Below are positions 47,927-62,732 of a stretch of DNA of 64,000 nt, one piece after another. The translations under genes were made by a program, and so were the position numbers. Location of the stretch: the NCBI RefSeq assembly GCF_007994075.1, contig NZ_VIWU01000001.1, positions 8,246,001 to 8,310,000 on the forward strand. The letters run 5' to 3'. Below the pieces are notes generated by a model. It saw only the letters and a list, made by a program, of their open reading frames with translations. It did not search any database and had not been told where the DNA came from. Source of the stretch: Pseudonocardia hierapolitana (GTDB taxonomy: Bacteria; Actinomycetota; Actinomycetes; Mycobacteriales; Pseudonocardiaceae). The stretch's first letter is position 1; the number at the start of each line of letters is the position of its first letter.

Positions 47927-48709
47927 CTACACCCCTGCACGCAGCCCCAACGCCCGGGACGCCTCCGCCGCCGCGGTGCGCAGCAGCCCCAGCTGGTGCT
48001 CCTGCTCGGAGTCGGGCAGGTGCGCGGTCAGCCCGCTCACGCTCAGGGCCGCGACGGTGGCGCCCGTGTGATCCCGCACCGGGACGCTCAGCGCCTTGAC
48101 GCCCAGCTCGACGTCGTCGCGGCTGACCGCGAACCCGTCCTCGCGGATCCGCCGCACGTCCTCGCGCAACTGGTCGGCCGTGGCCTGGGTCGGCGAGGTC
48201 CGCCGCTGCAACGGACCCGCCAGGTAGCTCTCCACCTGCTCGTCGGGCAGGGTCGACAGCAGCAGCCGCGGGCCTGCGCCCAGGTGCAGCGGCAGCGCAC
48301 CGCCGACGCCGAGGGTGTGGGTGGAGGCGTACCGGCCGTCGAGCCGCTCCACGCAGACCGCCTCGTCGCCGCGCAGCACCAGCAGGAACACCGTCTCGCC
48401 GGTGCGCCGGTAGAGCTCCTGCATGGCCGGCAGCGCCCGCTCGCGAACGGACAGCCGCCGCGCCATCGCACTGCCGACCCGGAACGCCCCGATGCCGAGG
48501 CGGTACGTGCCCGGCGAGGGCCGTTCCACGAAGTCCCCGGCGGCGAGCGTGGTGAGGATCCGGTGGCAGGTGCTCTTGTTCAGCTCCAGCCGGGCGGCGA
48601 TGTCACCGAGGGAGAGCTCGTCGGTGGCCTCGGCGAGCAGCTCCAGCACCGCCATCGCCTTGACCAGCACCCGGACGGGCTCACCCGCACCGGCGGCCCT
48701 TTCGGCCAT
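47927..48709 (-). CDS. IclR family transcriptional regulator
   Basis: A 260-residue regulator. Winged helix-turn-helix (ELSLGDIAARLELNKSTCHRILTTL) then the GAF-like effector domain (RTGETVFLLVLRGDEAVCVERLDG, GVGGALPLHLGAGPRLLLS, RDHTGATVAALSVSGLTAHLP). Last gene of the minus-strand arm of the 13-gene locus, 27 bp from the kinase gene, so it is the probable pathway-specific regulator acting on the divergent region 53121-53369. Confidence 0.9.
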   Translation of the reverse strand: MAERAAGAGEPVRVLVKAMAVLELLAEATDELSLGDIAARLELNKSTCHRILTTLAAGDFVERPSPGTYRLGIGAFRVGSAMARRLSVRERALPAMQELYRRTGETVFLLVLRGDEAVCVERLDGRYASTHTLGVGGALPLHLGAGPRLLLSTLPDEQVESYLAGPLQRRTSPTQATADQLREDVRRIREDGFAVSRDDVELGVKALSVPVRDHTGATVAALSVSGLTAHLPDSEQEHQLGLLRTAAAEASRALGLRAGV

Positions 48710-48736
48710 CAGCGGCTCCTCCGATCGTCCACTCGA

Positions 48737-49663
48737 TCACGCTACGGCGCCGAACGCGAGCGTCGACGGGAGGTCGACGATGCCGGCGTCGGAGCCCAGC
48801 CCCTGCGCCACGAGGGCGGCGGCCGCCGTGCCCAGCCGCGCCGCGTCGGCCAGCGCACGGCCGGAACCGAGGCCCACCAGCAACCCGGCCGTGAAGGCGT
48901 CCCCGCAGCCCGTGGTGTCCACGACCGGAACCTCGAACGCCGGGATCCGCACGACGCCGCCGTCGTCCACGACCACGCAGCCCTCCGCTCCGGTCGTGAC
49001 GATCACGGTGCCGACCCCGGCCGCCCGGGCCACCCCCGCGGCCTCGACCAGGTCGTCGCGACCCGTCACGCCGCGGATCTGGTCGTCGTTGGGGAGCAGG
49101 TACCCGGTGTGCTGCCACGCGGGCCGCAGCACGTCCACCAGCTCCGGCCGGCCGACGCTGAGCAGGTCCATGCTCACGACCGTGCCGTGCGAAGCGGCGA
49201 AGCGGAGCAGGTCCGGGAGGGCGTCGCGGGTGAAGTCCCCCAGGACGTCCGGCCCGCCGACGTGCAGCACGTCGGCCTCCGCCACGAGGTCCAGGGGAAC
49301 ATCGGCCGCGGTGAGCGTCGCCATCGCGCCGGGGGCGTGCAGGGCGGGTCGCTCGCCGTTGGGCCGGATCGGCAGCATGGTCGCGGGCGTCGCGAGGCCC
49401 GGCCGGCGGGCCATGTGCCGCACGTCGACGCCGTGCCCGGCGAGCAGGTCGAGCAGCAGCCTGCCGGTGACGTCGTCGCCGACCGGGCCGATGCTCACCA
49501 CGTCGGCGCCGAGCTTGGCGAGGTCGACGGCGGTGCCGCCCGCCGTGCCGGCGGCCGTGATCCGGATCTCGTCGAGCACGCGGCGGCCCTGGCCGGGCGG
49601 GATGTCGGGGACCGGGCGGCCGAGGATGTCCAGGATGTGCGCGCCGAGGCAGATCACCTTCAT
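48737..49663 (-). CDS. PfkB family carbohydrate kinase
   Basis: A 308-residue ribokinase-fold sugar kinase. The N-terminal GTAGGTAVDLAKLGADVVSIGPVGDD (signature 1, in part) and C-terminal VDTTGCGDAFTAGLLVGL (signature 2, with catalytic Asp and anion-hole GCGD) are intact. It overlaps the aldolase gene by four bases. A kinase followed by a class II aldolase is the usual arrangement for ketose or ketonate breakdown, so it most likely phosphorylates the aldolase's substrate. Confidence 0.9.
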   Translation of the reverse strand: MKVICLGAHILDILGRPVPDIPPGQGRRVLDEIRITAAGTAGGTAVDLAKLGADVVSIGPVGDDVTGRLLLDLLAGHGVDVRHMARRPGLATPATMLPIRPNGERPALHAPGAMATLTAADVPLDLVAEADVLHVGGPDVLGDFTRDALPDLLRFAASHGTVVSMDLLSVGRPELVDVLRPAWQHTGYLLPNDDQIRGVTGRDDLVEAAGVARAAGVGTVIVTTGAEGCVVVDDGGVVRIPAFEVPVVDTTGCGDAFTAGLLVGLGSGRALADAARLGTAAAALVAQGLGSDAGIVDLPSTLAFGAVA

Positions 49664-50304
49664 GCCGGGACCTCCGTGCGGCGGCGCGCGACCGCGGCCA
49701 GCTCGTCACCGGTGAGCACCCGGGGTGTGCCCATGCCCGTCGCGGTGACGTGCAGCGCGCACAGCCACTCCAGCAGCCGGGCCCGGTCGTATGCCTGATC
49801 GAGCGTGTCGCCGTGGGCGACGGCGCCGTGGTTCTGCATGAGCGCAGCCGTGCGGCCCTGCAACGCCGCGTGCACCGAGCGGGCCAGCTCCGGGGTGCCG
49901 TAGGTCGCATAGCGCGCGACCCGGACCGGCCCGCCCAGCTGCAGCACGTAGTAGTGCAGGGCCGGGAGCTCGTCGAGCACGGTGGACACCGCCGCGCTGT
50001 GCAGCCCGTGGTGGTGCACCACGGCGGTGGCCCCGGTCGTGGCGTAGACGCCGAGGTGCATGGGCGTCTCGGAGGACGGGGGGTGCGGGCCGTCCACCCG
50101 GTTCCCGGCGAGGTCGACCACGGCGACGTCCGCGGGTTCGATCCGGTCGTACGCCATGCCCGACGGGGAGACCGCCACCAGCTCACCGACGCGGACGCTC
50201 ACGTTGCCCGCGGTGCCCAGCACCAGCCCGTCGTCGAGCATCCGGCGGCCGCACGCCGCGACCTCCCGGCGGGCGGCGGCGAGCGCGTCCGTTCCCCGGC
50301 TCAT
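49660..50304 (-). CDS. Class II aldolase/adducin (fuculose-phosphate aldolase-like)
   Basis: A 214-residue Zn2+-dependent aldolase. GTAGNVSVRVGELVAVSPSGMAYDRI carries the phosphate-binding loop (in part), SSETPMHLGVY the catalytic Glu and first His, VVHHHGLHSAAVS the HxH zinc ligands and ALMQNHGAVAHGDTLDQAY the third zinc His. Typical products are DHAP or a hydroxy-ketone plus an aldehyde. Four-base overlaps with both neighbours (kinase and ABC ATPase). Confidence 0.9.
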   Translation of the reverse strand: MSRGTDALAAARREVAACGRRMLDDGLVLGTAGNVSVRVGELVAVSPSGMAYDRIEPADVAVVDLAGNRVDGPHPPSSETPMHLGVYATTGATAVVHHHGLHSAAVSTVLDELPALHYYVLQLGGPVRVARYATYGTPELARSVHAALQGRTAALMQNHGAVAHGDTLDQAYDRARLLEWLCALHVTATGMGTPRVLTGDELAAVARRRTEVPA

Positions 50305-51434
50305 CGCGCACCAGCCGCGACCGGGGTGGCCTGCGCGTCGACGGTGGGCTCCGGCTCGTCGTCCGGGACGAGCACGCCTGCGCCGTCGTCCCAGGAGACC
50401 TCGACCCGCTGGTCCACCGCGAGCGAGCCACCGGCGCCCGCGGTGTCACGCACCTGTCCGGTGCCCCCGCCGTCGAACCGGACCAGCACCCGCCGGAACG
50501 CGCCGTGGTAGACGACGTCGGTGATGGTGGCCGACAGGACGTTCCCACCGGTGGCCGCCCCACCGGCCGGGGCGATCCGCAGCCGCTCAGGGCGCACCAC
50601 CAGTGCCACCGGGCCGTCGGAGGCCGATGCCTCCGGCACCCGGAGGCTGCACCAGCCGGTGTCGAGCCGGCCGTCGCGGACCCGGCCGGCGAACACGTTG
50701 GAATCGCCGAGGAACGTGGCGACGAACCGCGAGGCCGGCGTCTCGTACAGCTCGGCGGGCGTGCCCGCCTGCTCGATGCGGCCGTCGCGGAACACCGCGA
50801 TCCGGTCGGACAGCGCGAGCGCCTCGTCCTGGTCGTGGGTGACGAACACGAACGTGATGCCCAGCTCCCGGTGCAGCCGGGCGATCTCCAGCTGCAGCGA
50901 CTCGCGCAGCTTCTTGTCCAGCGCCCCGAGCGGCTCGTCGAGCAGCAGCGCGCGCGGCTCGAACACGACCGCCCTGGCCAGCGCGACGCGCTGCTGCTGC
51001 CCGCCGGACAGCTGGGACGGCAGCCGCTCGCCGTGCCCGTCCAGGTGCACCAGGTCGAGGGCCTCCGCCACCCGCCGGGCGATCTCGCCCTTGGCGACCT
51101 TGCGCTGCTTGAGCGGGAACGCGATGTTCTCGGCCGCGGTCATGTGCGGGAACAGCGCGTAGTTCTGGAAGACCATCCCCAGGTTGCGCCGGTACGCCGG
51201 GAGCTGCGCGATGTCGTTGCCGTCCAGGGCGATCCGGCCGGAGGTGATCGCCTCGAACCCGGCGATCATGTTCAGGGTCGTGGTCTTGCCCGAACCGCTG
51301 GGGCCGAGCAGGGTCATGAACTCCCCGGCCCGGATCTCCAGGTCGATGCCGTCGACGGCGGGGGCGGCCGCGCCGGGGAAGCGCTTGGTGAGGCCCTCGA
51401 CCTCGATGCGGGCTCCGGACGGGGCGTCAGGCAC
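50301..51434 (-). CDS. ABC transporter ATP-binding protein (PotA-like)
   Basis: A 377-residue ATPase. Walker A GPSGSGKTTTLNM, Q-loop MVFQNYALFPHM, signature LSGGQQQRVALARA, Walker B ALLLDEPLGALD and H-loop FVTHDQDEALALSD are all intact. A C-terminal TOBE domain (DGPVALVVRPERLRIAP) marks the CUT1/polyamine/iron-type class. It overlaps the permease gene by eight bases and powers the PotB/PotC-like permeases. Confidence 0.93.
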   Translation of the reverse strand: MPDAPSGARIEVEGLTKRFPGAAAPAVDGIDLEIRAGEFMTLLGPSGSGKTTTLNMIAGFEAITSGRIALDGNDIAQLPAYRRNLGMVFQNYALFPHMTAAENIAFPLKQRKVAKGEIARRVAEALDLVHLDGHGERLPSQLSGGQQQRVALARAVVFEPRALLLDEPLGALDKKLRESLQLEIARLHRELGITFVFVTHDQDEALALSDRIAVFRDGRIEQAGTPAELYETPASRFVATFLGDSNVFAGRVRDGRLDTGWCSLRVPEASASDGPVALVVRPERLRIAPAGGAATGGNVLSATITDVVYHGAFRRVLVRFDGGGTGQVRDTAGAGGSLAVDQRVEVSWDDGAGVLVPDDEPEPTVDAQATPVAAGAR

Positions 51435-52209
51435 GGGTCCTCCTGAGGGTGGCGGCCAGGGTCAGCAGGGCGGTGGTGAGCGTGACGACCACGGTGGCGG
51501 CCGCCGCGATCGTCGGGTCCACCTCGTTGGTCACGGACGTGAACATCCGCACCGGCAGCGTCTGCAGCTGCGGTGACTGGACGAATATCGACACCACGAC
51601 CTCGTCGAAGGAGGTGACGAACGCGAACACCGCACCCGACAGCACCCCGGGCATGATCAGCGGCAGGGTGACGGCGCGGAACGTGGCGGGCGCGGAGGCG
51701 CCGAGGCTGGCCGCGGCCCGTTCCAGGGTGCGGTCGAACCCACCCAGGGCCGACCCCACGTTCACGGTGACGAACGGGATCGCGAGCACCGTGTGCGCGA
51801 TGATGAAGCCGACCGGCGTGCCGATCAGGCCCCACTGCAGGAACGCGGCGTAGACGGCGACCGCGACCACGATGCCGGGCACGATGAGCGGCGCGAGGAA
51901 CAGCCCGTTCAGCACCCCGCGGCCCCGGAACGCCGTGCGGGAGAGGGCGAATGCGGCCGCGGTGCCGAGCAGGGTCGCGACCACCGTGACGATCACGGCG
52001 AGCTGGATCGACACCAGCAGCGCGTTGAGCCAGCTCGGCTCGGTGAAGAAGGTCTCGTAGTGCCGCAGGCTCCACGAGCTCGGCGGGAACGCGAAGCTGT
52101 CCTCACCGGAGAAGCTGATCGGGATGACGATCAGCGTGGGTACGAGCAACCAGGCGCCGATCAGGATGCCGAGCGCGACGAGCGCGCGGCGCAGGCCGAC
52201 GGACCTCAT
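51427..52209 (-). CDS. ABC transporter permease (PotC-like)
   Basis: A 260-residue, six-helix permease. The EAA loop reads RTLERAAASLGASAPATFRAVTLPLIMPG (in part), and the segment TSFDEVVVSIFVQSP is typical of PotC/PhnV-type permeases for polyamine-like or aminophosphonate-like compounds. ATG 52209 overlaps the preceding gene by four bases. Partner of the PotB-like permease. Confidence 0.9.
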   Translation of the reverse strand: MRSVGLRRALVALGILIGAWLLVPTLIVIPISFSGEDSFAFPPSSWSLRHYETFFTEPSWLNALLVSIQLAVIVTVVATLLGTAAAFALSRTAFRGRGVLNGLFLAPLIVPGIVVAVAVYAAFLQWGLIGTPVGFIIAHTVLAIPFVTVNVGSALGGFDRTLERAAASLGASAPATFRAVTLPLIMPGVLSGAVFAFVTSFDEVVVSIFVQSPQLQTLPVRMFTSVTNEVDPTIAAAATVVVTLTTALLTLAATLRRTRA

Positions 52210-53120
52210 GAGGCAGTACCTCCGACCAGGGCCGCGGGGGCGCCGCCGGTGCGGGTGAGCCGCTGCACGCCGGCCACGAGCACGAGGGTGACGACCAGCA
52301 GCGTCACCGCGAGCGCGCCGGCCGCGCCGAAGTTCAGCAGTTGGTTGACCTGGACCGAGATGAGCTGCGCCAGCATCGACTGCTGCGGCGACCCGACGAG
52401 CGACGGCGTCACGTAGAAGCCGAGCGAGAGCACCATCACCAACGTCGCGCCCGCGGCCACGCCGCGCAGCGACAACGGCAGGTACACGCGCAGGAACGCG
52501 TTGATCGGCCGGGCGCCGAGGCCCATCGCCGCATCGACGAGCCGCCGGTCGATGCCGCGCATGGCCGCGTACACCGGCAGCACCATGAACGGCAGCATCA
52601 CCTGGGCCATCGCGATGCTGACGCCCGCGGTCGTGCCCAGCAGGCGGGTCGGGCCGAGCCCGACCGCCGCGAGCAGCGCGTTGACGACGCCGGTGTCCTG
52701 CAGCAGCACGACCCACGCGAAGGTCCGTGCCATCAGCGACGTCCAGAACGGGAGCAGCACGAGTGCGGTGAGCACCGCCCGCCACCGGGGACCGACGATG
52801 GTCATCAGGTACGCGTACGGGTACGCGCAGAGCACGCACAGCACCGTGACGACCGCGGCCATTCCGAGCGTGCGCAGCACCACCGTGACGACGACCCCGT
52901 CGGTGGCGAGGCCGGTGTAGTTGCCGATGCCGAGCTCGGGCGTGCTCACCGAGAGCCAGGCCAGCCGGATCGCCGGGACCACGAAGAACACGCCGAGCAC
53001 GATGACGGCGGGAAGCGCGAGCAGCAGCAGCGCGCGGCCCGCGCGCCGCGTGCGGGACACCGCCGGTGGCGCGGGCGCCACGGCCGCTGTCCCCGCCGAG
53101 CTGACCGACACCATGGACAC
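52206..53120 (-). CDS. ABC transporter permease (PotB-like)
   Basis: A 304-residue, six-helix permease, first gene of the minus-strand arm. LLPFWTSLMARTFAWVVLLQ and the EAA loop RRLVDAAMGLGARPINAFLRVYLPLSL (in part) are PotB-class; SLGFYVTPSLVGSPQQSMLAQLI is the characteristic late loop. The start is GTG 53120 or ATG 53114. Divergent from its binding protein at 53370. Confidence 0.9.
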   Translation of the reverse strand: MSMVSVSSAGTAAVAPAPPAVSRTRRAGRALLLLALPAVIVLGVFFVVPAIRLAWLSVSTPELGIGNYTGLATDGVVVTVVLRTLGMAAVVTVLCVLCAYPYAYLMTIVGPRWRAVLTALVLLPFWTSLMARTFAWVVLLQDTGVVNALLAAVGLGPTRLLGTTAGVSIAMAQVMLPFMVLPVYAAMRGIDRRLVDAAMGLGARPINAFLRVYLPLSLRGVAAGATLVMVLSLGFYVTPSLVGSPQQSMLAQLISVQVNQLLNFGAAGALAVTLLVVTLVLVAGVQRLTRTGGAPAALVGGTAS

Positions 53121-53369
53121 ACCCCACTTCGGTCGCTATGTGGCACGGGTTTCACCATTCGAAATGGCAGCGTCGCGGCCGAGCGGCGTGTTGTCAACCC
53201 GTCGAGGAGGCCGGTTACGTGGATGAAATCGGATCGATCAGGCGGTTCACGCGCGAGGCCTTGACGCCCCCGTCCTGTGCCAGCCATTCTCCTGGTGCCA
53301 CATCCTGAATCGCGTTCTGGATTGTGAAACGCAAAGGTGCGTGGCACCCCGTCGATCGAAGGTGGTCCC
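53121..53369. promoter_or_regulatory. Divergent control region of the 13-gene locus
   Basis: 249 bp between the two arms. It contains an inverted repeat CCATT-CGA-AATGG (53155-53167), a TTGACA hexamer on the minus strand (53197-53192) overlapping TTGTCA on the plus strand (53191-53196), and a GCGTT...AAACGC dyad near 53311-53331. These are candidate sites for the IclR regulator and the two promoters; no -10 element is convincing. Confidence 0.45.
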
Positions 53370-54416
53370 GTGCGCAACCGCAGGCTCGTCACCGCGCTGG
53401 CCCTCACCGCTGCCGTCAGCTTCAGCGCCACCGGCTGCTTCGCCACCGTCGGCGGGGACCCGGCCGCCGGCGGCACCGTCGTGTTCAGCAACACCGGCGG
53501 AGCGCTCGCCGCGATCTTCGCCGAGACCGCCTACAAGGAGCTCTCCGGGCAGGGCATCCAGGTGGCCGAGGAGTCCCCGAACAACGAGGCCAAGCTCACC
53601 GCGATGGTCGAGTCCGGCTCCCCCACCTGGGACGTCTTCTACTCCTCGCCCTACCGCACCGTGGCCAAGTGCGACGTGCTGTTCGAGAAGCTGGACAAGT
53701 CCAGGATCAACACCGCCGGGCTCGACCCCGCGCAGGTCACCGACTGCGGGGTGCCGGTGCTGAAGTCCGCCTTCCTGCTGGTCTACAACGCCGACAAGTA
53801 CGGCGACCGGCCACCGCACAGCTGGGCCGACTTCTACGACACCACCAACTTCCCCGGCACCCGCGGGATCATGAACTACGCCAAGGACGCCGGCATGGAG
53901 ACGGCACTGCTCGCCGCGGGCGTGCCCGGCGACCAGCTCTACCCCCTCGATTACGAGCGCGCGTTCGCCACGCTCGACAAGATCCGGCCCTCGGTGCGGT
54001 TCTACGACACCGGTGCGCAGCAGACCCAGGCTCTCGAGTCCGGTGAGGTCGACATGATGCTGGCCTGGCCGGGGCGCGCCTACGAGGCGGCGAAGAACGG
54101 CGCCAACCTGAAGGTCGTCTGGAACCAGCCCCTCTACTACGAGGACTCGCTCGGCATCGTGAAGGGCGCCAAGAACCTCGACGCGGCGTACGCGCTGATC
54201 AACGCACTGGTCGACGTCCCGACCCAGGAGCTCATCATGCAGCGCCAGCCCTACGGCTCGCCCAACGCCAACGCGAAGCCGTCCGACGACCCGCTGATCA
54301 ACTCCTTCATCGCCACCAGCAACGTCACCGGCACGGAGGTGCAGCGCGACAACGAGTGGTGGGCGGCGAACCTCGACGAGGCCACCCGGCAGTGGACGGA
54401 GTGGGTGAACAGGTGA
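53370..54416 (+). CDS. ABC transporter substrate-binding lipoprotein (PotD-like)
   Basis: A 348-residue extracytoplasmic solute-binding protein (family 1, PotD/ferric-type cluster). Sec lipoprotein signal with lipobox SATGC. Mature features: TVVFSNTGGALAAIFAETAY, LTAMVESGSPTWDVFYSSPY, PVLKSAFLLVYNADKYGDRPPHSWADFYD (in part), FPGTRGIMNYAKDAGMETALLAAG and GEVDMMLAWPGRAYEAAKNGA. GTG 53370 has AAGGTGG upstream. It heads the plus-strand arm and overlaps the first amidase gene by four bases, so ligand capture and amide cleavage are translationally linked. The ligand is not obvious. Confidence 0.9.
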   Translation: MRNRRLVTALALTAAVSFSATGCFATVGGDPAAGGTVVFSNTGGALAAIFAETAYKELSGQGIQVAEESPNNEAKLTAMVESGSPTWDVFYSSPYRTVAKCDVLFEKLDKSRINTAGLDPAQVTDCGVPVLKSAFLLVYNADKYGDRPPHSWADFYDTTNFPGTRGIMNYAKDAGMETALLAAGVPGDQLYPLDYERAFATLDKIRPSVRFYDTGAQQTQALESGEVDMMLAWPGRAYEAAKNGANLKVVWNQPLYYEDSLGIVKGAKNLDAAYALINALVDVPTQELIMQRQPYGSPNANAKPSDDPLINSFIATSNVTGTEVQRDNEWWAANLDEATRQWTEWVNR

Positions 54417-56641
54417 GGTTGCTCGGCTACGGCGACCGGCTCTCCGTCCCCGCGGGCGGGCGCGTCGAGTTCAAGGTCAGCAGCGAGCTCCCGGAGTTCA
54501 CGCCCTCCCTGGTGCGGCTGCGCCGCGGCGGCTCCCCGGTGCACGAGTCCGACCTGCTGGAGGAGGAGGTCGAAGCGTCGCTCCCGGCGACGGTGCCCGG
54601 GCGCGTCCAGGTGGCCCGCGCCGGCTCCTACGTCGAGGCGCCACTGCGTCCGGGCGCCGAGGTGTCCGGCGCCGGGCTCGCGGTCTGGCTGCTCCCCACC
54701 CGGCTGGACCGCGACCGCGAGCAGACCGTGCTCGCGCTGATCGCCCCCGACGGAGCCACCGGCTACCTGCTGTCCGTCTCGGCGCGCGGCTGCACGCTCC
54801 GCGACGCGGGCGGGACCGAACTGGCCCGCCTCGACGTGGCACCGGTCGAGCGCCAGTGGTCGTTCCTCGCGGCGACGGTCTCCCTCGCAGGCGAGGTCCA
54901 GCTCGCCTTGCACAGGCCGGGAGGTGCCGACTCCCGGGTTCAGGAAAGCCACATTCAGGGCCGTCAAGGCCAGGAAAGTGGCTTTCCTGAACCTCGGGGA
55001 ACGGGCACGTGGCTGCTCCGGGTCGGCGCCGGCCCGCGCGGGGGCTTCTTCAACGGCCGGGTGGCTCGGCCGGTCGTGTCTGCCACGAGCTGGACCGCCG
55101 ACGCGACCGAGCGGCTCGCCGCGGGCGAGGACGCGGTCGCGCTCCTGGGCACCGACGGCGTCAGCGCCCTTGCGCTCGGCCGGGACCCCGCGGCCACCGC
55201 GGTGGCCGACGACGGGTCGCTCACCGCGGGCGGCGTCGCCGTCAACCGGCCGGCGAGCGCCGTGCCCGGGCCGTTCTGGCGCTGCCGCGAGACCGACTTC
55301 CGGCGCGTGCCGGACGAGTACGACGCCCTGCACCTGCACGAGGACGACCTCGACGACGCCGGATGGGAGACCGATGTGGTCCTCACCGTCCCCGCCGGGG
55401 CGGCGAGCGGCGCCTACGCCCTGAAGATCCGCGCGGGCGACCACGTCGACCGCATCCCGTTCGTCGTCACCGCGCCCGACGGCACTCCCCCGGCCCCGGT
55501 CCTCGTGGTGCTGCCGACCTGGACCTACCTCGCCTACGCGAACTGGCGCACCTACGCCGAGTTCGAGGAGGAGCGGGTCGCGCTCTACGGGGAGCGCCGC
55601 GGCGTGGACCCCCGGGACCGCTGGCTGGCCCGCCACCCGGAGCTCGGCAAGTCGCTCTACGACGTGCACACCGACGGCAGCGGCGTCATGTACTCCTCCC
55701 GGGCGCGGCCGATCGTCAACATCCGCCCGGACTACTACACGCCCACCACCCGCGGGCTGCGCCACTTCGCGCAGGACCTGTCGCTGCTGGACTGGCTCGA
55801 CCGCCGCGGCGAGGACTACGCCGTGATCACCGACGACGAGCTGGAGGACCACGGCGCGGACGCCCTCGCCGGGCACCGCGTCGTGATCACCGGCAGCCAC
55901 CCCGAGTACTCGTCGGCGCGGATGCTCGATGCCTACCAGGCCCACGCCGACTCCGGCGGCCGGCTGATGTACCTGGGCGGCAACGGCTTCTACCACGTCA
56001 CCGCCCGCCACGAGGGGCCGTCCGGGGCGATCGAGATCCGCCGCGCCCGGGGCAGCCGGACGGCGTGGGCCAGCGGCGCGGGCGAGGAACACCTGTCCGG
56101 GACCGGCGAGCCCGGCGGGCTGTGGCGGTGGCGCGGCCGGGCGCCGCAGCGCCAGTTCGGCGTCGGCATGACCGCACAGGGCTTCGACAAGGCGAGCGGC
56201 TACCGCAGGACCCCGCAGAGCCGCGACGATGCGGTCGCCTGGGTCTTCGACGGCGTGGACGTGGGCGTCGGCGAGATCTTCGGCGACCACGGCCCCGGCC
56301 TCGGCGGGGCGGCGGGCGACGAGATCGACCGCGCCGACGTCGCGCTGGGCACCCCGGCCGACGCCGTGGTGCTGGCGAGCTCCGTGGGGCACTCCGCGAG
56401 CATCGTCCTGGTCCCGGACGATCAGACGATCTCCTACGCGGTACCCACCGCACCCGACCCACGGGTCCGCTCCGACATCGTGATCTTCGGCAGGCCCGGC
56501 GGCGGCGCCGTCTTCGCGGTCGGCTCCATCGCCTGGTCCACCGGGATGACGCACAAGGGCGGCGACAACGACGTCTCCCGGATCACCGCCAACGTCCTGG
56601 ACCGCTTCCGCGACCACGCCGACCCGGTGGCCCGCGCATGA
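54413..56641 (+). CDS. N,N-dimethylformamidase large-subunit-like protein, copy 1
   Basis: A 742-residue protein resembling DmfA2, the large subunit of the iron-dependent N,N-dimethylformamidase. The N-terminal half has a concanavalin/LamG-like fold (EFKVSSELPEFTPSLVRLRRG, FFNGRVARPVVSATSW); the C-terminal half is the amidohydrolase-like core (VLVVLPTWTYLAYANWRTYAE, IVNIRPDYYTPTTRGLRHFAQDL, YAVITDDEL, VITGSHPEYSS, MYLGGNGFYHV). In DmfA2 the mononuclear iron is held by Tyr and Glu residues in this half; I cannot assign them exactly. No small-subunit (DmfA1) gene is present. A palindromic element is inserted in frame in the LamG-like part. GTG 54413 overlaps the binding-protein stop. Confidence 0.85.
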   Translation: MRLLGYGDRLSVPAGGRVEFKVSSELPEFTPSLVRLRRGGSPVHESDLLEEEVEASLPATVPGRVQVARAGSYVEAPLRPGAEVSGAGLAVWLLPTRLDRDREQTVLALIAPDGATGYLLSVSARGCTLRDAGGTELARLDVAPVERQWSFLAATVSLAGEVQLALHRPGGADSRVQESHIQGRQGQESGFPEPRGTGTWLLRVGAGPRGGFFNGRVARPVVSATSWTADATERLAAGEDAVALLGTDGVSALALGRDPAATAVADDGSLTAGGVAVNRPASAVPGPFWRCRETDFRRVPDEYDALHLHEDDLDDAGWETDVVLTVPAGAASGAYALKIRAGDHVDRIPFVVTAPDGTPPAPVLVVLPTWTYLAYANWRTYAEFEEERVALYGERRGVDPRDRWLARHPELGKSLYDVHTDGSGVMYSSRARPIVNIRPDYYTPTTRGLRHFAQDLSLLDWLDRRGEDYAVITDDELEDHGADALAGHRVVITGSHPEYSSARMLDAYQAHADSGGRLMYLGGNGFYHVTARHEGPSGAIEIRRARGSRTAWASGAGEEHLSGTGEPGGLWRWRGRAPQRQFGVGMTAQGFDKASGYRRTPQSRDDAVAWVFDGVDVGVGEIFGDHGPGLGGAAGDEIDRADVALGTPADAVVLASSVGHSASIVLVPDDQTISYAVPTAPDPRVRSDIVIFGRPGGGAVFAVGSIAWSTGMTHKGGDNDVSRITANVLDRFRDHADPVARA
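54937..54993. repeat. Palindromic element inserted in frame in the first amidase gene
   Basis: Arms of 16 bases at 54937-54952 and 54978-54993 are perfectly complementary (left arm GGTTCAGGAAAGCCAC), separated by 25 bases. The core matches the hairpin at 16759-16811. It encodes about 19 residues (VQESHIQGRQGQESGF region) absent at the same place in the tandem paralogue, where a different loop is found. Confidence 0.8.
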
Positions 56642-58824
56642 GGCTCGTCGGTTACGCCGACCGGCTCTCCGTGCGCGCCGGGGACCCGATCGCGTTCCAC
56701 GTCAGTTGCGCGCACGCGGACTATCGGCCGGAGGTCGTCCGGCTGCGGCGCGGCGGCTCGCCCCGCCACGGGCTCGCGCTCGTCGAGGAGACCGTCGCGA
56801 GCGGGCTGCCGGCTCGGCTGCCGGGCCGCGTGCAGACCACCACCTCCGGCTCGTTCGTCGAGGCGGGCCCGGTCGGTCCGATGGACGCGGTCGGGCTCGC
56901 GGTGTGGTTCCTCCCGACCCTCCCCGGCACCAGCCCTCGGCCGCTGCTGGCGGTCGGCGACCTGGTCCTCGACGTCTCGGCCGCCGGGTTGGCCCTGCGC
57001 CGCGGCGCGACCACGCTGGCCACCCTCGACGCGGCGCCCGTCGAGCGACGCTGGTCGTTCGCCGCCGCGACCGTGGACGCCACCGGCGAGGTGCGGCTCT
57101 CGCTGCACCGGCCGGGCCTCGACGCGGCAACCACGGCCGCGCAGGCGCGACCGTCCGCGACCAGCGGGGTGCTGCGGATCGGCGCTGATGCAGGTCCGGG
57201 CGGCACGCCGACCGGCGGGCTCGGCACGACGTTCAACGGGAAGGTCGCCCGGCCGGTCGTCGCCGCGACCGCCTGGCCCGCGACGACGACGGCGGCGGTG
57301 GCGGCCGGCGCCGACCCGCTCACCCTGCTCGACCCGGCCACGACCAGCGCGCTCGACCTCGCCGCCGACCCCGGCGGCACCCGCGTGCACGACCGCGGCG
57401 GGCTCACCGGCGGCGCGCTGATCAGGCACCTCCCCACCCGCGGCGTGCCCGGGCCGTTCTGGACCGGCGCGGAGGCCGACTTCCGCCGCGCCTCGGAGGA
57501 GTTCGACGCGTTGCACCTGCACGACGACGACCTCGCCGACGCAGGCTGGGAACCGGATCTCACCTGGGACGTCCCCACCGACCTGCCCAGCGGCGTCTAC
57601 GCCCTGAAGACGACCGCGGAGGGGGACGTCGACCGGATCCCGTTCGTCGTCACCCCGGCCCGGCACGAGGCGCCGGTGCTCGTGGTGCTGCCCACGTGGA
57701 CCTACCTCGCCTACGCGAACTGGCGCACCTACGCCGAGTACGAGGCCGAGCGGCTGGTGATCTACGGGGAGGCGCGCGGGATCGACGAGCGGGACCGCTG
57801 GCTGGTTGCGCACCCCGAGTTCGGTCGCTCGCTCTACGACGTGCACACCGACGGCAGCGGGGTCTGCCACTCCAGCAGGCTGCGCCCGATCGTCAACATC
57901 CGGCCCGACTACTACACCCCCACCACCCGCGGGTTCCGCCACTACGCGCAGGACCTGCTGCTGCTCGACTGGCTCGACCGGCGCGGCGAGCACTACGCCG
58001 TCGTCACCGACGACGAGGTCGAGCGCGAGGGCGCGGACCTGCTCTCCCGCTACGACGTGGTGCTCACCGGCAGCCACCCCGAGTACTGCTCGGCGGGCAT
58101 GCTCGACGCCTACCTCGGCTACACGCGCGCCGGTGGGCGGCTGATGTACCTGGGCGGCAACGGCTTCTACCAGGTCACCGCCCGGCACCCGGGCCACCCG
58201 GACTCGGTGGAGATCCGCCGCGGCCACGCGGGCGTGGCCACCTGGGTGTCCGACCCCGGCGAGGAGCACCTCGCGGCGACCGGCGAGCGGGGCGGGCTGT
58301 GGCGGATGCGCGGGCGCGCGCCGAACCTGCTGGCCGGCGTCGGGTTCACCGCGCAGGGCTTCGACTCCGGGTACGGCTACGCCCGCACCGAGGCGAGCGC
58401 GGACCCGTCGGTCTCGTGGGTGTTCGAGGGTGTGCCCGCCGGGGTCGGTGACGTCTTCGGCGTCGAGGGGCCCGGTCTGGGCGGCGCCGCCGGTGACGAG
58501 CTGGACCGCGCCGACGTCACGCTCGGGACACCGGCCGACGCCGTCGTGCTGGCCTCGTCCGTCGGGCACTCGGACAAGATCGCGCTGGTGCCCGAGGAGG
58601 CCGACCACGGCTACGCCGCGCCCCCACCCGGCATCCACCCCAAGGTCCGCGCCGACGTCGTCCTCTTCGCGCGGCCCGGCGGCGGGGCCGTGTTCTCCGT
58701 CGGCTCGATCGCCTGGTCGACCGCGATCACGCACAAGGGCGGCGACAACGACGTCTCCCGGATCACCGCCAACGTCCTCGACCGGTTCCGGGACGAGCCC
58801 GGCCCGGTGGTCGGCGAGCAGTAA
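56638..58824 (+). CDS. N,N-dimethylformamidase large-subunit-like protein, copy 2
   Basis: A 728-residue tandem paralogue of the upstream gene, collinear throughout: RLVGYADRLSVRAGDPIAFHVS, TFNGKVARPVVAATAW, VLVVLPTWTYLAYANWRTYAEYE, IVNIRPDYYTPTTRGFRHYAQDL, VLTGSHPEYCSAGMLDAYL and the shared C-terminus AWSTAITHKGGDNDVSRITANVLDRFRDE (in parts). The iron-site region is conserved in both, so both may be active, perhaps as a hetero-oligomer or with different specificity. ATG 56638 overlaps the first copy by four bases. It lacks the palindromic insert. Confidence 0.85.
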   Translation: MRLVGYADRLSVRAGDPIAFHVSCAHADYRPEVVRLRRGGSPRHGLALVEETVASGLPARLPGRVQTTTSGSFVEAGPVGPMDAVGLAVWFLPTLPGTSPRPLLAVGDLVLDVSAAGLALRRGATTLATLDAAPVERRWSFAAATVDATGEVRLSLHRPGLDAATTAAQARPSATSGVLRIGADAGPGGTPTGGLGTTFNGKVARPVVAATAWPATTTAAVAAGADPLTLLDPATTSALDLAADPGGTRVHDRGGLTGGALIRHLPTRGVPGPFWTGAEADFRRASEEFDALHLHDDDLADAGWEPDLTWDVPTDLPSGVYALKTTAEGDVDRIPFVVTPARHEAPVLVVLPTWTYLAYANWRTYAEYEAERLVIYGEARGIDERDRWLVAHPEFGRSLYDVHTDGSGVCHSSRLRPIVNIRPDYYTPTTRGFRHYAQDLLLLDWLDRRGEHYAVVTDDEVEREGADLLSRYDVVLTGSHPEYCSAGMLDAYLGYTRAGGRLMYLGGNGFYQVTARHPGHPDSVEIRRGHAGVATWVSDPGEEHLAATGERGGLWRMRGRAPNLLAGVGFTAQGFDSGYGYARTEASADPSVSWVFEGVPAGVGDVFGVEGPGLGGAAGDELDRADVTLGTPADAVVLASSVGHSDKIALVPEEADHGYAAPPPGIHPKVRADVVLFARPGGGAVFSVGSIAWSTAITHKGGDNDVSRITANVLDRFRDEPGPVVGEQ

Positions 58825-58833
58825 GGAGCAGCA

Positions 58834-59673
58834 GTGCCCGTCACCAGTACCGACCAGGTGGCGCACCTCGCCGACCGGGCGAGGTTCGTGCGCACCGAGA
58901 CCGTCCGGCTCACCCGGATCGCGGGAGCAGGCCACTACAGCGCCGTGTTCTCCTGCGCGGAACTCTTCGCTGTTCTCTACTACGCACAGCTGCGCCTCGA
59001 CCCGTCGCGCCCGGACTGGCCGGACCGCGACCGGTTCGTGCTCAGCAAGGGGCACGCGGCCATCGGCCTGTACCCGGTGCTCGCCGACCTCGGCTTCTTC
59101 GACCCGTCCGAACTGGACACCTACACGCGGCTGGGCAGCCCGTTCGGCGACCACCCGGACATGCGCCGCATCCCCGGCGTCGACTTCTCCTCCGGCTCGC
59201 TGGGGCACGGGCTGTCGATCGCCGCGGGCATGGCCCTCGCCGGACGGATGTCCGGCTCGGACCACCGCACCTACTGCATGCTCGGCGACGGCGAGCTGGC
59301 CGAGGGTCAGATCTGGGAGGCCGCCATGTCGGCCGGGCACTTCCGGCTCGGCAACCTCGTCGCGATCGTCGACGCCAACCAGCTCGGCATCGACGGCTTC
59401 GTCCGCGACGTCATGGCCGCCGAGCCGATCGACCGGCGCTTCGCCGCGTTCGGCTGGCAGACCCACCGCGTCGACGGCCACGACATCCCCGCCCTGCTCG
59501 AGCTGTTCGCCGGGCTGCCGGCGGCCGCGGACGGCCCGCCGCAGCTCGTCGTCGCCGACACCGTGAAGGGCAAGGGGGTGGCCCGGATGGAGCTCTCCCC
59601 CGACTGGCACGTCGGCAACCTCGTCGGCGCCGACTACGACGACGTGCTGGCCGAGCTGGAGGGACGGGCATGA
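58834..59673 (+). CDS. Transketolase, N-terminal (TPP-binding) subunit
   Basis: A 279-residue split transketolase subunit. SKGHAAIGLYPVLADLGFF, GSLGHGLSIAAGMALAGRM and the TPP/Mg2+ motif GDGELAEGQIWEAAMSAGHFRLGNLVAIVDANQLGIDG (in parts) are intact; KGKGVARME closes the domain. GTG 58834 has GGAG upstream. Needs the C-terminal subunit encoded next (four-base overlap). Split transketolases occur in specialised sugar catabolism (for example apulose phosphate cleavage), so it is likely to serve the pathway here rather than central metabolism. Confidence 0.93.
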   Translation: MPVTSTDQVAHLADRARFVRTETVRLTRIAGAGHYSAVFSCAELFAVLYYAQLRLDPSRPDWPDRDRFVLSKGHAAIGLYPVLADLGFFDPSELDTYTRLGSPFGDHPDMRRIPGVDFSSGSLGHGLSIAAGMALAGRMSGSDHRTYCMLGDGELAEGQIWEAAMSAGHFRLGNLVAIVDANQLGIDGFVRDVMAAEPIDRRFAAFGWQTHRVDGHDIPALLELFAGLPAAADGPPQLVVADTVKGKGVARMELSPDWHVGNLVGADYDDVLAELEGRA

Positions 59674-60701
59674 GCACCCAGGACCAGTCCGAGCTGTTCA
59701 ACGGCACGGCGAACGTCGGCCTCAAGGACACCCGCTCCGTCGACGGCACCGACACCCGGGCGATCCCCGCGTTCGTCTTCGGCGAGGAGCTCGCCCGCCT
59801 CGCCGACCACGACCCCCGCATCGTCGTGCTCACCGCCGACCTCGCCCGGTCCAACCGGGCGACCGACTTCGCGAACCGGCACCCCGAGCGCTTCGTCAAC
59901 GTCGGCATCGCCGAGAAGAACATGATCACGATGGCGGCCGGGATGGCCGCGTCCGGCTACATCCCGTTCGCGGCCACGTTCGGCGCGTTCGCCGCGCTGC
60001 TGGGGGCCGAGCAGATCCGCACCGACTGCGCCTATCCCGGCATGCCGGTCCGGGTCGTCGGCCACCACTCCGGCATGTCCATGGGCTTCTACGGCACCAG
60101 CCACCACAGCCTGGAAGACCTCGGGATGATGCGCTGCATCGCCGACCTCACCGTCGTCTGCGCCACCGACGCCAACCACCTGCGCGCGCTGCTGCGCCTG
60201 TCGCTCGACCACCCGGGCGCGATGTACATCCGGCTCGGCCGCGGACGGGATCCGCAGGTCTACCCCGAGGTGCCGGATCTCGCGATCGGCCGCGCCGAGA
60301 CCGTCCGCGACGGCACCGACCTGACGATCATCGCCACCGGATCCGAGGTGCACCCCGCGCTGCAGGCCGCCGACGAGCTGGCCGGCGCGGGCATCTCCAC
60401 CCGGGTCATCGACATGTTCACGATCGCCCCACTGGACCGCGACGCCGTGCTCGACGCCGCGCGCTCCACCGGTGCCGTCCTCACCGTCGAGGAGGGCAAC
60501 GTCACCGGCGGGCTGGGCAGTGCGGTCGCCGAGTGCCTGTTCGAGGCGGGCGCCCACGTCCCGTTCCGCCGCCACGGCGTGCCCGACGAGCACGTGCCCG
60601 TCGGACCGCCCGCCGCGCTCTACGCCCACTACCGCCTCGACGGGCCCGGCATCGCGTGTGTCGCCCGTGAGCTGCTCGACTCCAGCAAGGGAACCTCATG
60701 A
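59670..60701 (+). CDS. Transketolase, C-terminal (pyrimidine-binding) subunit
   Basis: A 343-residue partner subunit. RFVNVGIAEKNMITMAAGMAASG bears the catalytic Glu that activates TPP, YPGMPVRVVGHHSGMSMGFYGTSHHSLEDLGMMRCI (in part) the substrate loop, and ATGSEVHPALQAADELAGAGISTRVIDMFT with VLTVEEGNVTGGLGSAV the C-terminal domain. The N-terminus is longer than usual by about 20 residues. Four-base overlaps at both ends. Confidence 0.93.
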   Translation: MSTQDQSELFNGTANVGLKDTRSVDGTDTRAIPAFVFGEELARLADHDPRIVVLTADLARSNRATDFANRHPERFVNVGIAEKNMITMAAGMAASGYIPFAATFGAFAALLGAEQIRTDCAYPGMPVRVVGHHSGMSMGFYGTSHHSLEDLGMMRCIADLTVVCATDANHLRALLRLSLDHPGAMYIRLGRGRDPQVYPEVPDLAIGRAETVRDGTDLTIIATGSEVHPALQAADELAGAGISTRVIDMFTIAPLDRDAVLDAARSTGAVLTVEEGNVTGGLGSAVAECLFEAGAHVPFRRHGVPDEHVPVGPPAALYAHYRLDGPGIACVARELLDSSKGTS

Positions 60702-61933
60702 CGATCGCACCCGCCTCCGTCCTCGGCGAGCACGAGCTCGCGCTGCGCGAGCGGGCCCGCCAGGTGATCCCCGGCGGGATGTACGGCCACATGTCCGTGC
60801 AGGCGTTCAGCTCCGCACACCCCCAGTTCATGGCCTCCGGCGACGGCTGCCGGGTCACCGACACCGACGGGCGGACCTACCTCGACCTGATGTGCGGCTG
60901 GGGCCCGGTCGTGCTGGGGCACCGCCACCCGGGTGTCACCGCGGCGATACTCGACCAGCTCGAACGCGGCGACTGCCTCGACGGCACCAGCCCCGTCGCG
61001 GTCGAGTTCGCCGAGCTGCTGGTGGACACGATCCCGTCCGCGGACTGGGCGATGTTCTGCAAGAACGGCTCCGACGCCACCACCACCTGCGTGACGATCG
61101 CCCGCGCCGCCACCGGGAAGCGGAAGCTGCTGGTCGCCCACGGCGCCTACCACGGCGCGGTCCCGTGGTGCTCGCTGCGCGGCTCGGGCGTGACCGCCGA
61201 GGACCAGGCGCACCTGGTGCGCTACGAGTACAACGACCTGGCCTCCGCCGAGGCCGCCGCGGCCGAGGCGGGCGACGACCTCGCCGCGATCGTCGTCTGC
61301 CCGATGCGCCACGACATCAAGCGCGACCAGGAGCTCGTCGACCCCGCCTTCGCGCGCGGCCTGCGCGCACTCGCCGACCGCACCGGCGCCGTCCTGGTCC
61401 TCGACGACGTCCGCTGCGGGTTCCGGCTCGACCTCGGCGGCAGCTGGGAGCCGCTCGGCGTCCGGCCGGACCTGTCGGCCTGGTCGAAGGCGATCGCCAA
61501 CGGGCAGGCGCTGGGTGCCGTCACCGGGATCGAGGCACTGCGCGACGCGGTCCGGTCGGTCTACGTCACCGGGTCGTTCTGGACCGCGGCGGTGCCGCTC
61601 GCCGCCGGGCTGGCGACCCTGACGGAGCTGCGCAAGGGCGTGGCGCTGCCGGACATGGCCCGCACCGGGGCCCGGCTCCGGGAAGGGCTGGCCGCGCAGG
61701 CCGCCGCGCACGGGTTCGAGATCCGCCAGACCGGACCGGTGCAGATGCCGATGCTCTCCTTCGCGGGCGACGAGGACTTCCGGCTGGTCACCGCGTGGGC
61801 CGAGGCCGCGGTCGAGCGCGGTGTGTACCTGCACCCCTGGCACAACTGGTTCCTGTCCGCCGCCCACACGGACGCGGACATCGACGCGATCCTCGCGCGC
61901 ACGGACGAGGCGTTCGCGGCCGTGCAGGGATGA
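60698..61933 (+). CDS. Class III aminotransferase (GSAM-like)
   Basis: A 411-residue PLP fold-I enzyme close to glutamate-1-semialdehyde aminomutase-like transaminases. YLDLMCGWGPVVLGHRHPGV, FCKNGSDATTTCVTIARAATG, AYHGAVPWCS, VLDDVRCGFRL (PLP Asp) and the Schiff-base Lys in LSAWSKAIANGQALGAVTG are all present. No heme genes surround it, so it probably transaminates an amino- or keto-sugar intermediate from the amidase step. ATG 60698 overlaps the transketolase gene. Confidence 0.9.
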   Translation: MTIAPASVLGEHELALRERARQVIPGGMYGHMSVQAFSSAHPQFMASGDGCRVTDTDGRTYLDLMCGWGPVVLGHRHPGVTAAILDQLERGDCLDGTSPVAVEFAELLVDTIPSADWAMFCKNGSDATTTCVTIARAATGKRKLLVAHGAYHGAVPWCSLRGSGVTAEDQAHLVRYEYNDLASAEAAAAEAGDDLAAIVVCPMRHDIKRDQELVDPAFARGLRALADRTGAVLVLDDVRCGFRLDLGGSWEPLGVRPDLSAWSKAIANGQALGAVTGIEALRDAVRSVYVTGSFWTAAVPLAAGLATLTELRKGVALPDMARTGARLREGLAAQAAAHGFEIRQTGPVQMPMLSFAGDEDFRLVTAWAEAAVERGVYLHPWHNWFLSAAHTDADIDAILARTDEAFAAVQG

Positions 61934-61958
61934 GGGGACGCCCGGCCATACTCGGTGC

Positions 61959-62732
61959 GTGCCTGAAGATCGGGAAAGCCGGCCCCGCCCGTTCGACCTG
62001 ACCGGGAGGACGGCGGTCGTCACCGGCGGCGCCCGCGGTCTCGGCCGGGGCATCACGCTCGCGCTGCTCGCCGCGGGCGCCGACGTCGTCTCGCTGGGCC
62101 GCTCGCCGCTGCCCGCCGAGCTCACCGACACCGCCTCCGCGCTGGGCAGGCGGCTCACCGCCCGCACCCTCGACCTCGCCGACACCGCCGCGATCACGGC
62201 GACCGCGCGGGACGTGCTCGCCGAGCACCGGATCGACATCCTGGTCAACAACGCGGGTGTCCAGGACCGGCACCCGGCCGTCGAGTTCCCGCTCGAGGCG
62301 TGGGACCACGTCATCGACGTCAACCTGCGGGCGGTCTTCCAGCTCTGCCAGCTCTTCGGCGGTCCCATGCTCGACCGCGGCGGCGCCATCGTGAACGTGG
62401 CGTCGCTGCTGTCGTTCCAGGGCGGCATCACGGTGCCGGCCTACGCCGCCAGCAAGGGCGGGGTCGCCCAGCTCACGAAGGCGCTCTGCAACGAGTGGGC
62501 CGGCCGGGGCGTCAACGTCAACGCCGTCGCCCCCGGCTACATGGACACCGAGCTGAACACCGCGCTCCTCGCCGACCCGGTCCGGCGCGAGCAGATCTCC
62601 GCTCGTATCCCCGCCGGGCGCTGGGGCCGGCCGGAGGATGTCGGGAACGTGGTGGTGTTCCTCGCCTCCCCCGCCGCCGCGTACGTGCACGGGCAGGTGC
62701 TCGCGGTCGACGGCGGGTGGCTCGCGCGGTAG
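61959..62732 (+). CDS. SDR family oxidoreductase (KduD-like)
   Basis: A 257-residue short-chain dehydrogenase resembling 2-deoxy-D-gluconate/gluconate dehydrogenases. TGGARGLGRGITLALL is the cofactor motif, LVNNAGVQDRHP the NNAG motif, then Ser in NVASLLSF and Tyr-Lys in YAASKGG; APGYMDTELNTAL and GQVLAVDGGW follow. GTG 61959 lies 25 bp after the aminotransferase. Last gene of the arm; likely oxidises or reduces a hydroxyl/keto group of the pathway intermediate. Confidence 0.9.
   Translation: MPEDRESRPRPFDLTGRTAVVTGGARGLGRGITLALLAAGADVVSLGRSPLPAELTDTASALGRRLTARTLDLADTAAITATARDVLAEHRIDILVNNAGVQDRHPAVEFPLEAWDHVIDVNLRAVFQLCQLFGGPMLDRGGAIVNVASLLSFQGGITVPAYAASKGGVAQLTKALCNEWAGRGVNVNAVAPGYMDTELNTALLADPVRREQISARIPAGRWGRPEDVGNVVVFLASPAAAYVHGQVLAVDGGWLAR

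What the first reader, a model, noticed from the sequence alone, without database searches (positions are those of the whole stretch)
47927..62732. Undescribed 13-gene catabolic locus built around two tandem DMFase-like amidases
Seen: two divergent arms with 4- to 8-base overlaps. They carry an IclR regulator, PfkB kinase, class II aldolase, complete PotABC-type importer with its binding protein, two paralogous DmfA2-like proteins, a split transketolase, a class III aminotransferase and an SDR. Family knowledge: DmfA2-like enzymes hydrolyse amides; kinase plus aldolase and split transketolases break phosphorylated sugars. Inference: the locus imports an N-acyl or N-alkyl-amide sugar/polyol (or aminocyclitol-like) compound, cleaves the amide, transaminates and oxidises it, phosphorylates the product and splits it into central intermediates. 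I know no described pathway with this set.
Basis: partly seen in the sequence, partly recalled or inferred. Interest (0 to 1): 0.82.

Follow-up and report, generated by a model that had tools for sequence, protein, structure and literature searches.

The report
Operon for breaking down amino-alcohol amides
A soil actinobacterium carries a self-contained, separately regulated set of about twelve genes that most likely imports an amide of a small amino-alcohol, removes the amine and splits the remaining carbon chain; the exact food compound is not known.

Summary
In detail: 13 open genes lie at 47927-62732 in two divergent arms with 4- and 8-base overlaps, families as named. Twelve form the real unit (IclR to aminotransferase, 47927-61933). 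In 10 of 10 related loci nine recur: IclR, three importer genes, binding protein, dmf2, both transketolase halves, aminotransferase. Kinase plus aldolase recur in 9, dmf1 in 5, the SDR in 0. A palindrome between the arms recurs in 11 of 11; in two related genomes, at up to one mismatch, it occurs nowhere else, which suggests a dedicated regulator. The aminotransferase lies in a clade containing FumI (48% identical), which deaminates the 2-amino-3-hydroxy end of hydrolysed fumonisin B1. Elsewhere this clade sits beside sugar kinases, class II aldolases, split transketolases and three unrelated amide hydrolases. Best reading: amide import, iron-amidase cleavage, transamination to a hydroxy-ketone, then C-C cleavage by a transketolase with an unusual acceptor site and/or by kinase plus DHAP aldolase. 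Binding protein and dmf1 seem to travel together. Substrate unknown; why both cleavage systems are kept is unexplained. New variant of a known kind.

The parts
47927..48709 (-). IclR-family regulator, presumed owner of the divergent operator
   Evidence: Pfam IclR_C, HTH_IclR; in 10 of 10 related loci
48737..49663 (-). PfkB-family kinase; nearest solved relatives YdjH and sulfofructose kinase
   Evidence: in 9 of 10 related loci; a PfkB near the same aminotransferase clade in 32 of 48 loci
49660..50304 (-). class II (fuculose-1-phosphate type) aldolase
   Evidence: 9 of 10 related loci
50301..51434 (-). PotA-like ABC ATPase
   Evidence: ABC_tran + TOBE_2; 10 of 10
51427..52209 (-). ABC permease (perm2)
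   Evidence: BPD_transp_1; 10 of 10
52206..53114 (-). ABC permease (perm1)
   Evidence: BPD_transp_1; 10 of 10
53149..53165 (.). operator-like palindrome, 2 mismatches from RTTTCAYNNNRTGAAAY
   Evidence: only match with up to 2 mismatches in the 64 kb window; a match in 11 of 11 intergenic regions; at up to 1 mismatch the only two sites in each of G259 and G188 lie in this region, while the own genome's one such site is elsewhere
53370..54416 (+). solute-binding lipoprotein, PotD/GABA/mannopine-binding type
   Evidence: SBP_bac_8; nearest solved 4eq7, also 4i1d, MotA; 10 of 10; its type tracks dmf1
54413..56641 (+). dmf1, DmfA2-like amidohydrolase (742 aa)
   Evidence: DMFA2_C; best solved 8huy N-acetyl-(R)-beta-phenylalanine acylase; Y375, Y416, E498 match DMFase Y399, Y440, E521; 5 of 10 related loci
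56638..58824 (+). dmf2, DmfA2-like amidohydrolase (728 aa), the constant one
   Evidence: DMFA2_C; 6lvb/8huy; Y359, Y400, E482; 10 of 10
58834..59673 (+). split transketolase, ThDP subunit
   Evidence: Transketolase_N; GHYS, SKGH, GDHPD, GDGE, WHVG stretches; 10 of 10
59670..60701 (+). split transketolase, pyrimidine/C-terminal subunit with GFYG in place of GEDG
   Evidence: 10 of 10
60698..61933 (+). class III aminotransferase of the FumI clade
   Evidence: best solved relative FumI 6hbs, 410 bits against 175 for the next; 48% identical over 399 columns; FumI nested in the clade; 10 of 10
61959..62732 (+). KduD-like SDR, adjacent but probably not part of the unit
   Evidence: 0 of 10 related loci

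Best explanation
The twelve genes at 47927-61933 are one regulon for growth on an N-acylated amino-alcohol of the form HOCH2-CH(NH-CO-R1)-CH(OH)-R2. Shown by sequence: conserved gene set, shared operator-like site, families, catalytic residues. Inferred, step by step: the lipoprotein and Pot-type importer take up the amide; Dmf1 and Dmf2, mononuclear-iron amidohydrolases, remove acyl group(s); the FumI-clade aminotransferase passes the amine to pyruvate or a similar acceptor and leaves HOCH2-CO-CH(OH)-R2; this ketol is cut by the split transketolase (C2 unit to an acceptor, R2-CHO released) and/or phosphorylated at C1 by PfkB and cut by the FucA-type aldolase to DHAP and an aldehyde. IclR switches both arms from the intergenic palindrome. 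The binding protein and Dmf1 act as a swap-in cassette that admits a substrate needing an extra hydrolysis before Dmf2.
For: Nine genes recur in 10 of 10 related loci, and 69 other DMFA2 loci lack the partners at the thresholds used. The palindrome is in 11 of 11 intergenic regions and, at up to 1 mismatch, nowhere else in two related genomes. The aminotransferase falls in a 51-row clade (100/100) that holds FumI; FumI moves the C2 amine of hydrolysed fumonisin B1, beside a 3-hydroxyl, to pyruvate (PMC2933618, abstract and passages). Of 48 loci with this aminotransferase, 37 have a sugar kinase (32 PfkB, 5 OtnK), 25 a class II aldolase, 15 a split transketolase and 16 an N-acyl hydrolase of three unrelated families. 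The transketolase keeps its ThDP and histidine motifs but has Phe-Tyr for Glu-Asp in the acceptor site. PfkB is nearest to YdjH and sulfofructose kinase, the aldolase to FucA. The SBP tree splits exactly by presence of dmf1, also in L009, whose AT, dmf2 and tkC group with a dmf1-less locus.
Against: No ligand, product or expression data. Transketolase and kinase/aldolase on one ketol look redundant; a ketol without a 4-hydroxyl could not be cut by the aldolase. The transketolase keeps three of the phosphate-site residues (S345, H416, R474), and the fourth, R318, is undecided: a gap in the alignment, but most orthologues have an Arg a few residues upstream, so an unphosphorylated donor is weakly supported. 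The engineered TktA R358I/H461S/R520Q that gains activity on 5-keto-gluconate (PMC12016104, passages) is thus only a loose parallel. The GFYG type also occurs beside sugar-acid genes without this aminotransferase. 14 loci of one family have aminotransferase + PfkB with no labelled amidase, 12 of them no aldolase in range. 7 of 48 loci have neither kinase nor transketolase (L111 and L155 lie near contig ends). The 48 are not independent: 10 are orthologues of this unit, 14 come from one family. The GSAM substrate Arg could not be judged. In the own genome the operator copy has 2 mismatches and a better match lies elsewhere. Only 45 of 78 DMFA2 loci match all three of my iron-site patterns.
Confidence: 0.5

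Rival explanations
1. The substrate is an arylserinol or sphingoid-like amide (chloramphenicol or ceramide kind). Dmf cleaves the amide, AT makes the 1,3-dihydroxy-2-ketone, and the transketolase alone cuts it to an aldehyde; kinase and aldolase recycle the C2 carrier ketose.
For: FumI acts on a sphingoid analogue; Phe-Tyr in the transketolase acceptor site; L006 and L105 have transketolase + AT without kinase/aldolase.
Against: A binding protein nearest to GABA/polyamine and opine binders suggests a small polar ligand; kinase/aldolase kept in 9 of 10 relatives. Passages of two papers on bacterial chloramphenicol breakdown name other enzymes (PMC11446756, PMC9590159).
Confidence: 0.15
2. The substrate is an N-acyl beta-amino acid; AT is a beta-transaminase and the class II aldolase homologue acts as a decarboxylase on a phosphorylated 3-keto acid, as described for OtnK/OtnC (recalled).
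For: dmf1 and dmf2 match N-acetyl-(R)-beta-phenylalanine acylase over nearly their full length; five relatives of the AT sit with OtnK and a class II aldolase; beta-transaminases are within the wider fold family.
Against: FumI outscores the best beta-transaminase 410 to 121 bits; the 3-oxo-tetronate-phosphate decarboxylase model is seventh for the aldolase, behind ribulose-1-phosphate and fuculose-phosphate aldolase models, all below cut-off.
Confidence: 0.13
3. Two pathways share one importer and regulator: a ketose route (kinase + aldolase) on one arm and an amide-amine-transketolase route on the other, for different substrates.
For: The two halves lie on different arms; L006 has lost kinase + aldolase only.
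Against: In other genomes kinase and aldolase sit near the same AT clade with no labelled amidase or transketolase (L099, L102, L108, L145, L150), so AT and kinase/aldolase look like one route.
Confidence: 0.12
4. A biosynthetic unit that builds an amino-ketose, like the aminoshikimate genes.
For: Split transketolase plus aminotransferase also occur in antibiotic clusters (recalled).
Against: Importer, binding protein, hydrolases and IclR point to uptake and breakdown.
Confidence: 0.04

Closest known systems
FumI, aminopentol aminotransferase of Sphingopyxis fumonisin breakdown (6hbs)
   Same: Same clade, shares the stretches PGGMYGH, TGSFW and HPxHN with the window protein; chemistry: 2-amino-3-hydroxy to 2-keto-3-hydroxy.
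   Different: 48% identical over 399 columns; the window substrate is unknown and the genes around FumI were not compared.
N,N-dimethylformamidase DmfA1A2 (6lvb) and N-acetyl-(R)-beta-phenylalanine acylase (8huy)
   Same: DMFA2_C domain, near full-length match to 8huy, recalled iron-ligand residues conserved.
   Different: No small-subunit-like gene found in the window or the 10 relatives (with one such gene as query); natural substrate different or unknown.
Split transketolase of Carboxydothermus (6yaj/6yak); catabolic split transketolases AptAB and SqwGH (recalled)
   Same: Same two-chain architecture.
   Different: GFYG for GEDG; linked to an aminotransferase and amidase.
Sulfofructose- and IolC-type kinase plus DHAP aldolase routes (recalled)
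   Same: PfkB kinase and DHAP-type aldolase.
   Different: The ketose would come from transamination of an amine.
Rhizobial tkN-tkC-AT-Pot importer loci (L120, L121)
   Same: Split GFYG transketolase, a class III aminotransferase and a Pot-type importer in one row.
   Different: Aminotransferase of another clade (about 30%), no labelled amidase, kinase or aldolase.

Membership tests
DMFase (DmfA1A2) | DMFA2_C large chain | tested here: met
DMFase (DmfA1A2) | 2-Tyr-1-carboxylate iron site (ligands recalled) | tested here: met
   Y399/Y440/E521 equivalents present in both proteins
DMFase (DmfA1A2) | adjacent small subunit | tested here: not met
   SBP, dmf1 and dmf2 overlap, leaving no room; a 121-aa gene found before other DMFA2 genes gives no significant hit in the window or 10 relatives, but that gene itself has no PDB match
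DMFase (DmfA1A2) | hydrolysis of dimethylformamide | not testable with these tools
   -
FumI-type aminotransferase | falls in the FumI clade, apart from GSAM | tested here: met
   51-row clade 100/100 with FumI inside
FumI-type aminotransferase | deaminates a 2-amino-3-hydroxy substrate | not testable with these tools
   -
Transketolase | ThDP motif and the four histidine stretches | tested here: met
   window row
Transketolase | sugar-phosphate and acceptor site (R318, S345, H416, D424, R474; human numbering, roles recalled) | tested here: inconclusive
   D424 replaced by Tyr; S345, H416, R474 kept; R318 undecided
FucA-type DHAP aldolase | full-length kinship with solved FucA, with SSE, HxH and NHG stretches (roles recalled) | tested here: met
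   alignment
Fumonisin (fum) pathway | fum-type carboxylesterase and other fum genes beside the aminotransferase | not tested
   the fum cluster was not fetched or compared

The most novel reading that the evidence does not exclude
There is a widespread, undescribed bacterial route for (N-acyl) 2-amino-1,3-diols or aminopolyols, built on a FumI-clade aminotransferase that turns the amine into a ketol, followed by interchangeable cleavage modules (GFYG split transketolase; a second split ThDP lineage; acetoin-dehydrogenase-like complex; PfkB or OtnK plus class II aldolase) and interchangeable acyl hydrolases. FumI would be a specialised offshoot. In the Pseudonocardia version the binding protein and first amidase are inherited as one specificity cassette.
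Probability: 0.38. Interest if true: 0.75.

Novelty: new variant of a known kind. Interest (0 to 1): 0.55.

Why it matters
The operator and the two binding-protein types make the substrate question directly testable: find their ligands and the pathway can be followed enzyme by enzyme.

Tried and rejected
Aminotransferase as ordinary GSAM or omega-amine transaminase: rejected by score and tree. Loss of the GSAM substrate Arg as evidence: the column shifts between aligners and some relatives show Arg there, so undecided. Loss of the transketolase phosphate-site Arg: first taken as shown, then withdrawn on re-reading (gap; Arg nearby in most orthologues; L094 and L118 not covered by the aligned stretch, L100 has an Arg one place off); confidence lowered from 0.55 to 0.50 and the novel case from 0.40 to 0.38 for this. 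The Asp-to-Tyr change as proof of an aldehyde without 2-hydroxyl: withdrawn, because the same change occurs beside sugar-acid genes (L119). Chloramphenicol as the substrate: my recollection of a transketolase route was not borne out. The dienelactone-hydrolase gene overlapping iclR: a counterpart was found in 1 of 10 relatives (L011, at the locus edge), so left out. Structure prediction was not used, since the enzymes and the binding protein have solved relatives.

The palindrome was picked by eye from the same intergenic sequences before the shuffle test, so that test is biased; the whole-genome count is cleaner but covers three genomes. Label proteins partly come from the loci counted (L095, L097, L098, L100, L102), whose genes are annotated in their records. 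Absence of amidases or other partners means no hit to those labels only.
Full report
WHAT IS THERE. The window is C1:8246001-8310000 of an 8.86 Mb one-contig genome. At 47927-62732 lie 13 open genes: IclR, PfkB, class II aldolase, PotA, two permeases on the minus strand; binding lipoprotein, two DmfA2-like proteins, two transketolase halves, class III aminotransferase, SDR on the plus strand. Families.

WHAT BELONGS TOGETHER. IclR, PotA, both permeases, binding protein, dmf2, tkN, tkC and AT are in 10 of 10; PfkB and aldolase in 9 (not P. acaciae L006); dmf1 in 5; the SDR in 0. The other 69 DMFA2 loci (best segment 45% or less) show no PfkB, split transketolase or aminotransferase at the thresholds and one aldolase; below those thresholds one search shows weak aminotransferase hits of 25-29% in four. 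Nine of the 69 are shorter than 10 kb. So the DmfA2 fold is common and the partnership is not; a few plasmid and genome loci outside this set do pair a DMFA2 gene with the same aminotransferase clade (L094, L097, L098, L107).

ITS OWN SWITCH. The region between the arms carries RTTTCAYNNNRTGAAAY in 11 of 11 loci at up to 2 mismatches (18 sites; 200 Markov shuffles gave 0.065 on average, at most 1), in 8 of 11 at up to 1. The motif was chosen from these sequences, so I then searched three genomes: at up to 1 mismatch G259 (7.3 Mb) and G188 (6.1 Mb) have two sites each, all four in this region; the window's own genome has a 2-mismatch copy here (53149-53165, the only such match in 64 kb) and one 1-mismatch site elsewhere. 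This is what a dedicated IclR operator looks like; binding is not shown.

THE AMINOTRANSFERASE IS THE KEY. Its best solved relative is FumI at 410 bits, the next (GSAM) 175; identity to FumI is 192 of 399 columns. In a tree of 54 rows, 51 form a clade (100/100) that excludes GSAM and the rhizobial aminotransferases and holds FumI next to Variovorax, Pseudosulfitobacter and Novosphingobium genes (several long branches). Within the 51 rows PGGMYGH is in 38, TGSFW in 46, HPxHN in 47. FumI moves the 2-amino group of hydrolysed fumonisin B1 to pyruvate, leaving a 3-hydroxy-2-ketone (PMC2933618, abstract and passages). At E of 1e-90 or better, own genome included, it is in 12 of 298 genomes of the order and 20 of 394 of the class (three genomes with a match in both).

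ITS COMPANY ELSEWHERE. I mapped 48 loci with this aminotransferase: the 10 above, 9 more, 12 plasmid records (12 of the 40 rows listed, two rows above 49% identity not fetched) and 17. Of 48: PfkB 32, OtnK 5, class II aldolase 25, split transketolase 15, an N-acyl hydrolase 16 (DMFA2, amidase-signature or penicillin acylase), Dpp importer genes 20, Pot importer genes 13; 41 have a kinase or a transketolase; 7 have neither. Three rhizobial loci add an acetoin-dehydrogenase-like complex. Fourteen loci of one family, and Nonomuraea L099, have AT next to PfkB, with the aldolase in 3 of these 15. The recurring logic is amine to ketone, then C-C cleavage, with an acyl hydrolase where the substrate would be an amide. 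Counts are inflated by relatedness.

TRANSKETOLASE. The N half keeps GHYS, SKGH, GDHPD, GDGE, WHVG. In the C half the human E423-D424 are Phe-Tyr in 19 of 21 rows (L104 a duplicate; six further duplicate loci dropped), while S345, H416 and R474 remain in the window. R318 falls in a gap, but most orthologues have an Arg a few residues upstream, so its loss is undecided. The two other rows (L094, L100; Rhizobium, Variovorax; 36-43% identical) are a second lineage with hydrophobic residues there; their N halves lack the first and third histidine stretches, keep a STAH stretch, and the last stretch is outside the aligned part. An engineered E. coli TktA (R358I/H461S/R520Q) is better on unphosphorylated 5-keto-gluconate (PMC12016104, passages); the window protein keeps the equivalents of two of those three, so this is a loose parallel. 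An unphosphorylated ketol donor is inferred mainly from the aminotransferase upstream. The same GFYG type sits beside sugar-acid genes in Rhodococcus L119.

AMIDASES AND BINDING PROTEIN. Both DmfA2-like proteins match DMFase and, over nearly their full length, N-acetyl-(R)-beta-phenylalanine acylase, and keep the residues recalled as iron ligands (in the 78 loci as a whole, 45 match all three of my patterns). A small gene in the DmfA1 position is found in 18 of 117 loci searched, but not in the window or its 10 relatives, and has no PDB match. Binding proteins fall in two types, split with support 1.000: with dmf1 (window, L004, L005, L006, L009, L011) and without (L007, L008, L010, L012, L103). 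L009 has its SBP-dmf1 pair behind AT; its AT, dmf2 and tkC group with dmf1-less L008, but its binding protein groups with the dmf1 type (by identity its perm2 is nearest L011, so the importer signal is mixed). That is 6 of 6 against 0 of 5, from only two independent lineages. I read SBP-dmf1 as a cassette that feeds a second kind of amide into the common dmf2-AT-TK core.

KINASE AND ALDOLASE. PfkB is closest to YdjH and sulfofructose kinase and to the IolC model (below cut-off); the aldolase to FucA. Together they suit a ketol phosphorylated at C1 and cut to DHAP. Why both this and a transketolase are kept is the main gap. Options: both cut the same ketol under different conditions, or kinase/aldolase recycle the ketose formed on the transketolase's acceptor.

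VERDICT. No description of the set appeared in the listings, limited to open-licence PubMed Central. Substrate class N-acyl amino-alcohol: about 0.5, lowered from 0.55 on re-checking the transketolase. The exact compound is unknown.

Noticed in passing
47137-47940: Dienelactone-hydrolase-family gene whose start overlaps the end of iclR by 14 bases; a counterpart in 1 of 10 relatives (L011, at the locus edge).
   Followed up: yes
G000 C1:911670-912962 (L002, L114): Third DMFA2 gene of the genome, with a LamG-like domain, flanked by Rbs-type sugar ABC transporter genes.
   Followed up: partly
L094 9165-10957 and L100 12073-14003: A second split ThDP enzyme lineage beside the same aminotransferase clade that lacks the first and third usual transketolase histidine stretches.
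   Followed up: partly
L119 7085-13804 (Rhodococcus plasmid): IclR, split GFYG transketolase, mandelate-racemase-family protein, succinate-semialdehyde-type dehydrogenase and L-idonate 5-dehydrogenase in a row: possible 5-keto-gluconate to tartrate route.
   Followed up: no
L120 7977-16089 and L121 (Agrobacterium, Pararhizobium plasmids): Split transketolase, another class III aminotransferase, two binding proteins, permeases and an SDR: an amidase-free analogue of the window unit.
   Followed up: partly
L098 6194-6559, L094 4713-5063: A gene of 116-121 aa directly before some DMFA2 genes (18 of 117 loci), in the DmfA1 position but without Pfam or NCBIfam match (both) or PDB match (L098 copy).
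   Followed up: partly
L094 5053-9052: An independent tandem pair of DMFA2 proteins (748 and 568 aa frames) before the second-lineage transketolase.
   Followed up: no
62748-63959: 403-aa frame with a C-terminal DUF6010 domain right of the SDR.
   Followed up: no
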